In this document: one piece after another, positions 30,979-38,397 of the stretch
How the letters are laid out: every line of letters starts with the position of its first letter
Position numbering within the stretch: the stretch's first letter is position 1
Notes under the pieces: model-generated
Database searches by the model: none
The model's input: the letters and a program-made list of their open reading frames with translations, nothing else
What the model was told of the DNA's origin: nothing
Program-made: the position numbers and the translations under genes
NCBI GenBank assembly: GCA_036924085.1
Contig: JAVGWX010000005.1
Coordinates: forward strand, 41,609,664-41,673,663
Length of the DNA: 64,000 nucleotides
From: Ariolimax columbianus
Lineage: Eukaryota; Mollusca; Gastropoda; Stylommatophora; Arionidae
Reading direction: 5' to 3'

Positions 30979-31622
30979 ATCTGGGGTAGTTGTCTCGCCG
31001 CAGCGACTCAATTTCAACCAGTGTTCGTAAAGCGATCTCAGTCCCGCCAGGCGGAGCGATAGCGCGGGCTTGCGGAAAACGCTCGCCTGCCTTTCCCCGT
31101 AGAGCGAATTGGGTGCGGTTTGTTGCAGCGGCTCCTCCACCGAGGTGCCCTGGTCTGGTCCGTATCAGGAAACGTGGTCCGTCCGTGGTGATTTATCTAA
31201 GGCTTATAGCAGAGCTCGACAGTACGTCTCGCTGGTGGTCCGACTCTCGCAAAGAGCTTGTGACCGGCAAATGGAAAGCAGGAATCGTTGCCTCGAGGCC
31301 CTGCGTTCTCCCTACGGAGAAGGGCAGGCCGGCAGGCCAAATTGTCTCTAGTCCCAGTGAAATTCGTCGCCGAGGTAGTTGGGATCCGTTCTGCACAGAG
31401 CGCTGCCATCCCTCCTCGAGCGAGCCCGGTCGGTCGGTCGTCTGGTGCGTGTGGGAGGCCCCTGTCAGCAGGCGGTCCTAGGTCGACGGAGTGAGGGACG
31501 GGTGGAACAAACCGTCCGTCCGTCCCGTCAGTCGGTCCCTGCGGCCGTCGTCCCAGCGAGGCTTTTTACACGTAACCCTTCCTCCGCCGACCGGTGTGTA
31601 CTGTACGTACGTCTCCGACAGA
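30979..31622 (+). promoter_or_regulatory. rDNA 5' external transcribed spacer fragment (copy B)
   Basis: This GC-rich stretch directly precedes the 18S 5' end and matches 19547-20161 of copy A. It contains CG-rich runs and tandem GGTCGGTCGGTC-like motifs near 31430. Its outer end is the element 5' end defined by the target duplication, so it should correspond to, or lie just downstream of, the pre-rRNA start site. Confidence 0.8.
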
Positions 31623-32789
31623 TATCTGGTTGATCCTGCCAGTAGTCATATGCTTGTCTCAAAGATTAAGCCATGCATGTCTAAGTTCACACTGTCTCAC
31701 GGTGAAACCGCGAATGGCTCATTAAATCAGTCGAGGTTCCTTAGATGACACGATCCTACTTGGATAACTGTGGCAATTCTAGAGCTAATACATGCTTACC
31801 AAGCTCCGACCCTCGCGGAAAGAGCGCTTTTATTAGTTCAAAACCAATCGTCGTTTCCCCTCGCGGGGTTGCGGCGTCCCCACTGGTGACTCTGGATAAC
31901 TTTGTGCTGATCGCATGGCCTCATGTGCCGGCGACGCATCTTTCAAATGTCTGCCCTATCAAATGTCGATGGTACGTGACATGCCTACCATGTTTGTAAC
32001 GGGTAACGGGGAATCAGGGTTCGATTCCGGAGAGGGAGCATGAGAAACGGCTACCACATCCAAGGAAGGTAGCAGGCGCGCAACTTACCCACTCCCGGCA
32101 CGGGGAGGTAGTGACGAAAAATAACAATACGGGACTCTTTCGAGGCCCCGTAATTGGAATGAGTACACTTTAAACCCTTTAACGAGGATCTATTGGAGGG
32201 CAAGTCTGGTGCCAGCAGCCGCGGTAATTCCAGCTCCAATAGCGTATATTAAAGTTGTTGCAGTTAAAAAGCTCGTAGTTGGATCTCAGGCGCAGGCGGG
32301 CGGTCCGGCTCGCGCCGGTTCACTGCCCGTTGTCTCCTGCCCTACCGTCTGCCGGCTATCTCCCACGGGTGCTCTTCGCTGAGCGTCCTGGGTGGCCGGC
32401 GCATTTACTTTGAAAAAATTAGAGTGTTCAAAGCAGGCCTCGGCTGCCTGAATAATGGTGCATGGAATAATGGAATAGGACCTCGGTTCTATTTTGTTGG
32501 TTTTCGGAACTGGAGGTAATGATTAACAGGGACAAACGGGGGCATTCGTATTGCGGCGTTAGAGGTGAAATTCTTGGATCGCCGCAAGACGAGCTACTGC
32601 AAAAGCATTTGTCAAGAATGTTTTCATTAATCAAGAACGAAAGTCAGAGGCGCGAAGACGATCAGATACCGTCGTAGTTCTGACCATAAACGATGCCGAC
32701 TAGCGATCCGCAGGAGTTGCTTCGATGACTCTGCGGGCAGCTTCCGGGAAACCAAAGTGTTTGGGTTCCGGGGGAAGTATGGTTGCAAA

Positions 32790-32838
<49 letters not shown>

Positions 32839-32862
32839 GCGGCTTAATTTGACTCAACACGG
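31623..32862 (+). rRNA. Partial 18S rRNA (5' two thirds, retrotransposed)
   Basis: It begins TATCTGGTTGATCCTGCC and proceeds through GTGCCAGCAGCCGCGGTAAT (near 32210), V4 and the AAGGAATTGACGGAAGGGC block. It leaves 18S after GACTCAACACGG at 32862. The next bases (CCAACACTGAAATG) are not 18S. About 1240 of ~1800 nt are present. The high conservation implies a young copy. It is not part of an rDNA unit: no ITS, 5.8S or 28S follows. Confidence 0.97.
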
Positions 32863-37400: not shown

Positions 37401-38368
37401 CACCAAAACCCATCACTACTGTACGAAAACCAACCTGGAGGCAGGATATATTTCCAGAGGTGGTAGAAAATATACCAGGTATTGCAAACAAAAACTGCCA
37501 GACTGAAAAAGAAAGGAGAGACACTACCCTAAGCTTCATAACGAAAAGCTACCCAAGCATGGACTGGACCCATGCATACACCGACGGTTCTGTAACAAAC
37601 ACTACACAGAACGGAGGGGCAGGAGCATTCCTGAACCTACCAAATGGCAGACAAATAACACTGTCATTCGCTACTGGTAAGTACACAAGCAATTTCAGAG
37701 CGGAGGCAGAGGCACTGAGGGCGGCAGTGGAAGAAATGGTGACACATAGTGAAAATGAGAGCCATATAGTTCTGCTGACAGATGCTCTCGAAGTAGTCAC
37801 AGCGCTAAAAAGCCAGAAAAACACTGAGCTTAATGACCTAAGAGCAGCACTCTGCAAACTGTGCCAGCAGTCCGCACCAAAAAGGGTAGTGGTACAGTGG
37901 GTCCCGTCACACTGCAACATCCAAGGCAACGAGGAGGCAGACAGACTGGCAAAAGAAGGTGCAAGACTACCACAAACAGATACCAGTATGACGTACGAAG
38001 AGTCAAAATGGCTTATCAAAGCCAGATACATGACCAAATGGGAAACCGAACATACTGGTTACACCAAAAACGATGCCTATTACCAGTTGAACCGAAGAGA
38101 GCAGGTCGTTGTCTTCAGACTTCGCACTGGCCACAACAGACTGAGGTACCACCTATTCAACAAATTGAAGATAGGGTGTACCGACGAATGCCCGTGCGGT
38201 ACTGGTAAAATGACCACTGAACATCTGCTGCAGAACTGCCCGACATACGAGGATCAGAGAGAGCAGATGTGGCCATTACCAGTGGAACAGCAAGACAAGC
38301 TCTATGGCAGTGGCGAGAGCCTCAGGATGACCGCCGCTTTTCTCGAAAAAATAATGGTTACTGTCTGA
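34460..38368 (+). CDS. Non-LTR retrotransposon polyprotein: endonuclease, RT, RNase H (1302 aa, intact)
   Basis: A single uninterrupted ORF from ATG 34460. Residues ~77-290 form an apurinic-type endonuclease (LQWNAEG, catalytic Glu in QETHL ~112, GDFNSHSERWG ~204, SDHRPI ~282). RT spans about 500-860: KRKSPGKDGI, YRPISLLSCVGK, VDLEKAFDKVW, GVPQGGVLSPTLF and the catalytic FADDLA at ~742. RNase H follows, with YTDGS ~1038, an FRAEAEAL helix and WVPSHCNIQGNEEADRLAKE ~1145. The last ~60 residues hold a CPCGTGK...H...C cluster. This layout is that of I/R1-group LINEs, which nick DNA and prime reverse transcription on the target. Basic residues dominate the first 70 positions. No ORF1 is recognised upstream. 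Being intact, it may still be active. Confidence 0.95.
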   Translation: MHGAASLTKQCNVNPSMMAVQPIRKTHGAHPAESRQAAIVPGPTPRRGPPLTTGGHPPMCRGVKAHGYGATSIGQNLKTLKILQWNAEGVINKKLSLTHHLHEGKIDVACIQETHLNNNHKFSIRGYQTFRLDREGHKGGVLILTRNNIPSSAVPVNHTGQAEIVGVDIMAQETKLRIFNLYGPPNRDLSLSSMEVRDSNCIVVGDFNSHSERWGYSDTDSRGDEVEDWEIDANLSLINRPEDSPSFYSRTWHTTSTPDLAFSTQDIHHKIDRQVLNQLAGSDHRPIRLTIDMEVGPQETKPLPRWNYKRADWDRFAILTDGLCETINTRNTKMKPMVESLSKAIMQAATETIPRGARKKYKPYWNDELQKVEDAVTNSRSMAEREKSMEANIALKAAAAKYKHTLKQTARESWKNKTESLNLDKEGNKLWKLVRAMNDETPSNKQITIKQGENLITGKKAANAFVDNYARANHIEVPADKHTDISEELKGHENINTAPEEHMMAKLTMREMEEDMRTLKKRKSPGKDGITNEMLMGLSQTAKRKLLSVLNQSWKRGILPQAWKDAILVPVPKTGKDKTDPNGYRPISLLSCVGKLMERMINTRLMWHLEEKRILIPQQAGFRQHRFTEDQVILIAQEIEDAYQAQKHTVAVWVDLEKAFDKVWKDGLRVKLRRSDVCGKMYKWINHYLKQRTARVQVQGQMSKKVTLEQGVPQGGVLSPTLFLVYINDITENIPRRVHSSMFADDLAMWTSEKNLTIARNRMQTALTSLEEWATSWLVKINEEKTTCTIFSLSLKPQSTKLSLNGKILQPNDNPTYLGVTFDRRMTWKSQIERNRMKARERMAIMRKLAGTSWGADEGILKKLYTGRVRPVLEYGIAAWTTAAKANFDKVNKLQNQAMRIITGGMKSTPIVELEKITKLQSMTDRRDCRAQLQSEKLRRLTDHPMYQRLNNLGNGKLKRRNFAEIAKAKMHEDPTNAQTTPKPITTVRKPTWRQDIFPEVVENIPGIANKNCQTEKERRDTTLSFITKSYPSMDWTHAYTDGSVTNTTQNGGAGAFLNLPNGRQITLSFATGKYTSNFRAEAEALRAAVEEMVTHSENESHIVLLTDALEVVTALKSQKNTELNDLRAALCKLCQQSAPKRVVVQWVPSHCNIQGNEEADRLAKEGARLPQTDTSMTYEESKWLIKARYMTKWETEHTGYTKNDAYYQLNRREQVVVFRLRTGHNRLRYHLFNKLKIGCTDECPCGTGKMTTEHLLQNCPTYEDQREQMWPLPVEQQDKLYGSGESLRMTAAFLEKIMVTV

Positions 38369-38379
38369 CTGTGTACGCA

Positions 38380-38397
38380 GAAGAAGAAGAAGAAGAA
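38380..38397 (+). repeat. AAG/GAA-repeat 3' tail of composite copy B
   Basis: Six or so GAA triplets follow GTGTACGCA and end at the target duplication. Copies A (14723-14735) and C (~49908-49922) end in related TTC runs on the opposite strand, so a triplet tail is a family feature. Confidence 0.9.

What the first reader, a model, noticed from the sequence alone, without database searches (positions are those of the whole stretch)
30979..38397. LINE that moves with a piece of the rRNA transcription unit as its 5' end
A 14-bp target duplication brackets one contiguous unit: ETS spacer, 5' two thirds of 18S, leader, intact EN-RT-RNase H ORF and GAA tail. The rDNA and LINE parts therefore integrated together from one RNA. 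A second copy (A) with the same joint lies in the Polinton. Site-specific LINEs of the R group live in rDNA and rely on pre-rRNA read-through, but I am not aware of one that spreads elsewhere carrying the spacer and 18S.
Basis: partly seen in the sequence, partly recalled or inferred. Interest (0 to 1): 0.9.

Follow-up and report, generated by a model that had tools for sequence, protein, structure and literature searches.

The report
LINE that copies pre-rRNA with itself
In this stretch of a likely mollusc genome a jumping gene sits twice with the beginning of the ribosomal RNA transcript (a likely transcribed spacer plus two thirds of 18S) fused to its front end, and the way the pieces have diverged suggests that its source copies probably live in ribosomal RNA genes and ride on their transcription.

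Summary
Unit B (30979-38397) is one 7,419-bp insertion: exact 14-bp target duplication, and the joined flanks read in frame. It holds a 644-nt spacer, 18S nt 1-1240, a leader, an intact 1,302-aa EN-RT-RNase H ORF and a GAA tail. Copy A (reverse strand) starts within about 24 nt of B's start, but leaves 18S 11 nt earlier and lacks 466 nt of leader. A and B come from source lineages already separated under selection (dS 0.086, omega 0.28). Yet their 18S differs by 2.3%, matching private decay (11 of 485 conserved positions), against 9.6% in the 28S-derived leader (p = 4e-12). So the 18S front did not age with the LINE; it was probably supplied fresh. I favour sources inside 18S genes, transcribed with pre-rRNA, whose read-through RNA inserted elsewhere; template switching onto pre-rRNA is the main rival. 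No parental rDNA copy could be sought: the genome search did not complete in all 23 attempts.

The parts
30965..30978 (+). left target-site duplication GGACTACATTAAAA of unit B
   Evidence: exact match to 38398-38411, only two occurrences in the window
30979..31622 (+). 644-nt spacer upstream of 18S, read as 5' external transcribed spacer; 5' end of the unit
   Evidence: runs without a break into the 18S start at 31623; shared with copy A
31623..32862 (+). 18S rRNA nt 1-1240, near-intact
   Evidence: Rfam SSU_rRNA_eukarya 944 bits; 2 B-only and 8 A-and-B-shared deviations at 485 conserved positions
32863..32996 (+). rest of leader unit 1, with 28S-like piece at 32908-32938
   Evidence: LSU score 32, largest of 500 shuffles 30; repeat D2
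32997..33177 (+). leader unit 2: 18S-like piece 32997-33058 (9 of 62 differences from the first copy) plus 28S-like piece 33104-33134
33178..33449 (+). leader unit 3: 18S-like piece 33178-33239 (4 of 62 differences) plus 28S-like piece from 33288
   Evidence: its 28S match alone is marginal (1 of 500 shuffles reaches it)
33450..33916 (+). decayed 3' end of 28S rRNA, to within 2 positions of the Rfam model end
   Evidence: Rfam LSU_rRNA_eukarya 71.5 bits, model 3005-3399/3401, extended upstream; 23 of 111 conserved positions changed
33917..34459 (+). remaining leader before the ORF
   Evidence: sequence; no Rfam match at E up to 0.1
34460..38368 (+). single ORF, 1,302 aa: APE-type endonuclease (aa 83-288), reverse transcriptase (575-822), RNase H (1039-1168)
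   Evidence: homologues
38369..38397 (+). short 3' UTR ending in a GAA repeat tail
38398..38411 (+). right target-site duplication of unit B
14717..20161 (-). copy A: spacer, 18S nt 1-1229, 28S tail, leader, ORF lacking endonuclease and part of RT; no target duplication seen by eye
   Evidence: its 5' end matches B from about 30997
17725..18127 (-). decayed 28S 3' end in copy A
   Evidence: Rfam LSU 79.4 bits
49903..52326 (-). copy C: older (85% identical to B), 5'-truncated copy without rDNA, bracketed by ATATTACTGCCG at 49891-49902 and 52327-52338

Best explanation
Unit B and copy A are dispersed LINE copies that carry a 644-nt spacer (likely the 5' external transcribed spacer; a little shorter in A) and 1.2 kb of 18S at their front, and they were likely made from read-through RNAs that started at the promoter of an rRNA gene with the LINE inside its 18S. 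Shown: in A and in B spacer, 18S and LINE lie in one orientation without a break; B is one insertion with a target duplication; the two starts lie within about 24 nt; both leave 18S within 11 nt of one another; the LINE parts come from separated lineages under selection, while the 18S parts differ by about as much as private decay explains. Inferred: the shared 5' end is the start of pre-rRNA; the sources sit near 18S nt 1240 and have their upstream 18S kept fresh by rDNA homogenisation; RNA polymerase I makes the template; the LINE protein then integrates the whole RNA elsewhere by target-primed reverse transcription. The decayed 18S/28S units in the leader are likely traces of earlier rounds of the same association, including a jump onto the 3' end of mature 28S.
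For: Single insertion with in-frame empty site. A-B differences: spacer 34/620, 18S 28/1224, 28S tail 70/733, pre-ORF 39/619, ORF part 82/2227, heterogeneous at p = 3.5e-13; 18S vs 28S tail p = 4e-12; 18S vs synonymous sites (40/492) p = 1e-7; 18S vs ORF part p = 0.03; spacer vs 28S tail p = 0.006. A-B ORF dS 0.086, dN 0.024, omega 0.28 (744 codons); C-B dS 0.49, omega 0.20 (794 codons), so the sources were under selection. At 485 conserved 18S positions: 2 B-only, 9 A-only, 8 shared deviations; private decay is 11/485 = 2.3%, the same as the whole 18S difference. In the 28S tail 23 of 111 conserved positions are changed. The 644-nt spacer is near the predicted mollusc 5' ETS of 500-581 nt in two Perna mussels (PMC6730533, section 10 read). 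Melanogaster-type R1 copies outside the rDNA carry 7-28 bp of upstream 28S (PMC2718515, section 14 read), attributed to transcripts that include 28S (passages). The only Rfam matches in 30900-34460 at E up to 0.1 are rRNAs, so no ribozyme was recognised that would cut the rRNA off.
Against: No copy inside an rRNA gene was seen; the search of the window's own genome did not complete. The targets of A, B and C do not look like 18S by eye, and no site-specific endonuclease is shown. The spacer differs by 5.5% between A and B, not significantly less than synonymous sites (p = 0.09) or the pre-ORF part (p = 0.55), so only the 18S part clearly escapes LINE-like ageing. A muricid snail has at least 980 bp of 5' ETS (partly assembled; PMC10797722, passages), so 644 nt need not be a whole mollusc ETS. 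A's lack of 466 nt of leader could be a later deletion, which would leave one joint instead of two. The older 28S layer, ending at the 28S 3' terminus, looks more like template jumping than read-through. The 8 shared 18S deviations could be old shared decay; the host 18S was not at hand.
Confidence: 0.5

Rival explanations
1. Template switching: the reverse transcriptase copies LINE RNA and, at the leader's 18S-like units, moves by base pairing onto pre-rRNA and runs to its 5' end. Each insertion gets a fresh spacer-18S front without any rDNA-resident source.
For: Explains fresh 18S, the defined 5' end and the 18S-like units next to the joint. The older 28S layer ends at the 28S 3' terminus, as end-to-end jumps would give. 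L1 makes 28S rRNA chimeras, n = 18, 83% in sense orientation (PMC13174262, passages read).
Against: A's joint shows only about 2 nt of shared sequence by eye, yet lies 11 nt from B's joint in an 18S of about 1.8 kb; independent jumps should scatter. A jump to an internal 18S position needs a broken acceptor or homology.
Confidence: 0.27
2. Permanent passenger: the LINE captured spacer and 18S once and has since spread with them as its own 5' end, perhaps as a promoter.
For: Two copies with nearly the same structure and 5' start; A and B share 8 deviations at 485 conserved 18S positions. The early spacer differs at a rate compatible with synonymous sites (29/447 vs 40/492, p = 0.38).
Against: 18S is far less diverged than leader and synonymous sites, while 18S-like units 2 and 3 in the same leader have decayed (9/62 and 4/62). 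A promoter at the 5' end should be conserved there, but the first 150 nt are the most diverged part of the spacer (12/148).
Confidence: 0.13
3. Assembly artefact or DNA-level recombination that joined rDNA to LINE copies.
For: rDNA is often misassembled (general knowledge).
Against: Exact target duplication outside the rDNA, in-frame empty site, two diverged copies with related joints, decayed 28S in both.
Confidence: 0.03

Closest known systems
[quoted passage not shown] passages)
   Same: Dispersed LINE copies; those of the melanogaster type have rRNA sequence at the 5' end, attributed to transcripts that include it; target duplications of 3 to 14 bp.
   Different: There 7-28 bp of 28S, and none in the ancestral type; here about 1.9 kb reaching back through 18S into the spacer. 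R1 is 28S-specific; no site preference is known here.
R2, R8 and R9 (rDNA-specific LINEs; PMC5035012 and PMC7650587, passages read)
   Same: Residence in rRNA genes; R8 sits in 18S of hydra.
   Different: R2 has its endonuclease-like domain after RT (passage) and a self-cleaving 5' ribozyme (abstract of PMC3774820 in the listing); here an APE-type endonuclease before RT, RNase H, and no ribozyme match.
LINE-1/28S rRNA chimeric insertions (PMC13174262, passages read)
   Same: rRNA and LINE in one insertion, mostly sense orientation.
   Different: Those 28S pieces are short (50-482 nt); here spacer and 18S, about 1.9 kb, in two copies with neighbouring joints.
Gastropod LINEs of Littorina saxatilis and Batillaria attramentaria (P0001, P0059, P0091, P0094)
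   Same: RT proteins of the same kind with 43-50% identity; an N-terminal RQA-VPGP-like motif is the consensus of a 23-protein alignment that includes P0059 and P0091.
   Different: No tool here gave their DNA, so whether they carry rRNA is unknown.

Membership tests
LINE (non-LTR retrotransposon) | endonuclease and reverse transcriptase in one protein | tested here: met
   Pfam RVT_1 4e-38, Exo_endo_phos_2 2e-18, RNase_H 4e-16
LINE (non-LTR retrotransposon) | target-site duplication, 3' simple tail, 5'-truncated relatives | tested here: met
   B: 14-bp duplication and GAA tail; C: 12-bp duplication and 5' truncation. A shows no duplication by eye.
rDNA-specific R element | copies inserted at one site of the rRNA genes | not testable with these tools
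   The genome search unanswered in all 23 attempts; the three copies in the window are outside rDNA
rDNA-specific R element | transcription as part of pre-rRNA | not testable with these tools
   only indirect: fresh 18S fronts and nearly shared 5' start
R2 group | restriction-like endonuclease C-terminal to RT | tested here: not met
   APE-type endonuclease N-terminal to RT
R2 group | HDV-like ribozyme at the rRNA-element junction | tested here: inconclusive
   no Rfam ribozyme match in 30900-34460 at E up to 0.1; diverged ribozymes can be missed
R1 clade | phylogenetic placement in R1 and an ORF1 | not tested
   no reference LINE set was at hand for a tree; only one ORF of 250 aa or more lies in the unit, shorter ones were not examined for ORF1
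LINE chimera by template switching | RNA joint specific to one insertion, LINE otherwise free of that RNA | tested here: inconclusive
   A and B have joints 11 nt apart; no full-length copy without rDNA is in the window

The most novel reading that the evidence does not exclude
A LINE lineage that owns no front end: in every replication cycle it takes its 5' end anew from the host's pre-rRNA, from the polymerase I start to 18S nt 1240, so each dispersed copy is stamped with the rDNA of its day, and the layered 18S/28S relics in the leader are the fossil record of earlier cycles.
Probability: 0.3. Interest if true: 0.85.

Novelty: new variant of a known kind. Interest (0 to 1): 0.62.

Why it matters
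In the case I could read about, R1 in Drosophila, copies that leave the rDNA keep at most a few dozen bases of rRNA. Here two copies keep about 1.9 kb from the front of the transcript. If the reading is right, such copies would mark where pre-rRNA starts, would show that an APE-type LINE with RNase H can use polymerase I transcripts as full templates, and would give dated samples of host spacer and 18S. It would also make testable how LINEs without promoters of their own persist.

Tried and rejected
Tried without result: own-genome search for further copies and for an 18S-resident source (genome search, 23 calls, never answered); relatives in viral contigs by one protein (nothing) and by a 23-row alignment (12 stretches, none a relative). 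The genome-contig scan gave 16 stretches, 9 of them distant LINEs (26-31% identity): 6 from records of bivalve symbionts, 3 from Bacteroidetes or Flavobacteriales MAGs. None of the 9 loci has an Rfam match at E up to 0.01, but they are distant and their 5' ends may be cut. A viral contig with a 28S piece (L001) served only as a check on the 28S-like pieces. Nine paper searches were answered; I saw only the listed rows (12 to 25 each, none) of up to 1,631 hits, and none of those titles or abstract starts describes a LINE carrying spacer plus 18S. The library holds open PMC papers only.

Considered and rejected: rDNA and LINE as two separate insertions (empty site); all A-B difference as ageing after insertion (heterogeneity); a conserved promoter at the 5' end (most diverged part of the spacer). 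One search had one consensus block out of register, dropped it and left one other short block out; one search is the corrected count. In one search, of 22 A-B differences in 18S with a consensus letter, 13 are A-derived, 5 B-derived, 4 unresolved.

Full report
What is there. Unit B spans 30979-38397, 7,419 nt. The 14-mer GGACTACATTAAAA lies on both sides and nowhere else in the window on either strand; joining the flanks with one copy of it gives an in-frame stretch in what looks like an older reverse transcriptase gene (RVT_1 E = 8.5e-4 for 49 aa, below Pfam's cut-off; a second piece of 44 aa had no match). The rDNA and the LINE therefore entered together. Inside are a 644-nt spacer, 18S from its first base to nt 1240 (31623-32862), a 1.6-kb leader, an ORF of 1,302 aa and a GAA tail. 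The ORF has an APE-type endonuclease, reverse transcriptase and RNase H and aligns with 22 relatives at 42-66% identity. Of the 120 homologues listed (of 286), those with a species name are from the snails Littorina saxatilis and Batillaria attramentaria, so the host is likely a mollusc; the 18S was not placed on a tree.

Much of the leader is itself rRNA. Rfam finds the 3' end of 28S at 33514-33916 in B and at 17725-18127 in A (71.5 and 79.4 bits), ending 2 positions before the model end; in a narrower scan the match runs further upstream. Between the fresh 18S and this 28S tail, B has units that repeat the joint of an 18S piece (model about 1146-1210) with a 28S-like piece. Scores of the 28S-like pieces against 500 dinucleotide shuffles each: units 1, 2 and 4 are reached by 0, unit 3 by 1; unit 1 is only just above its best shuffle (32 against 30). 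The 18S pieces of units 2 and 3 differ from the first copy at 9 and 4 of 62 positions, and the four 28S pieces differ from the consensus at 9, 6, 9 and 9 of 31.

Two copies compared. The 5' ends of A and B lie within about 24 nt (B at 30979; A matches from about 30997 or, if shared bases at A's junction belong to its flank, from 31003). Random 5' truncation over a 7.4-kb template would rarely do that (about 0.6%, my estimate), so the template RNA probably had a defined 5' end. A leaves 18S at the base matching 32851, B at 32862. A lacks B's 32852-33317, and has lost the endonuclease and part of RT. The A-B difference is 5.5% in the spacer (34/620), 2.3% in 18S (28/1224), 9.6% in the 28S tail (70/733), 6.3% before the ORF (39/619) and 3.7% in the ORF part (82/2227). 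These differ beyond chance (p = 3.5e-13). In the ORF dS is 0.086 and dN 0.024 over 744 codons, one stop left out, so most of the A-B separation predates insertion and happened under selection on the protein. The 28S tail differs at about the synonymous rate (p = 0.42), 18S far less (p = 1e-7). At 485 conserved 18S positions there are 2 B-only, 9 A-only and 8 shared deviations: private decay there, 11/485 = 2.3%, equals the whole 18S difference. The 8 shared ones look to me like ordinary animal variants (recalled, not tested).

Interpretation. The 18S front did not age with the LINE between the split of the two source lineages and the insertions. It was either kept fresh in the rDNA array upstream of rDNA-resident sources, or taken fresh from pre-rRNA. 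I prefer resident sources, because both joints lie within 11 nt in 18S and both copies start at nearly one 5' end, as RNAs from one promoter and one insertion site would. The spacer is less decisive: its early part differs about as much as synonymous sites (29/447, p = 0.38), the part next to 18S less (5/173), but the two parts do not differ significantly (p = 0.11). A more conserved later half of the 5' ETS is reported for Perna rDNA (PMC6730533, passages read). The 28S tail, ending at the 28S terminus and decayed at 23 of 111 conserved positions, is an older layer and may well come from a template jump. Spacer length does not decide where pre-rRNA starts: predicted 5' ETS is 500-581 nt in Perna but at least 980 nt in the snail Concholepas (PMC10797722, passages).

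Precedents. Melanogaster-type R1 copies outside the rDNA carry 7-28 bp of upstream 28S, ancestral-type R1 copies none (PMC2718515, section 14). L1 makes short 28S chimeras (PMC13174262, passages). In the listed rows of nine answered searches of open papers I saw no LINE with spacer and 18S as its front. The case is thus, as far as I could see, a new variant of rDNA-associated LINE biology, with an unproven source.

Limits. The decisive test, a look for the parental copy in 18S genes and a census of dispersed copies, could not be run: the genome search did not complete in 23 attempts. Only two rDNA-bearing copies and one truncated copy support the argument.

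Noticed in passing
31040-31069 and 34557-34585: A stretch AGTCCCGCCAGGC..AGCGATAG near the start of the spacer resembles the DNA for the conserved N-terminal motif (SRQA..VPG) of the ORF (score 39; largest of 300 shuffles 35); unexplained.
   Followed up: partly
4705-24256: Element with long inverted repeats (4866-5202 / 23716-24052, 96%), read as Polinton-like; an adenovirus-type protease (Peptidase_C5, 4e-05) at 20766-21284 fits, three other ORFs gave no clear Pfam match. Copy A lies inside it; sequence like its ends recurs within 53389-54506.
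   Followed up: partly
29345-29810: 44-bp tandem repeat just upstream of the old RT-like gene.
   Followed up: no
30093-30978 and 38412-38500: Older, broken reverse-transcriptase-like gene that unit B interrupts (weak RVT_1 match).
   Followed up: partly
L001:1-140: A contig of the viral collection starts with eukaryotic 28S and goes on as unrelated sequence, likely a chimeric contig.
   Followed up: no
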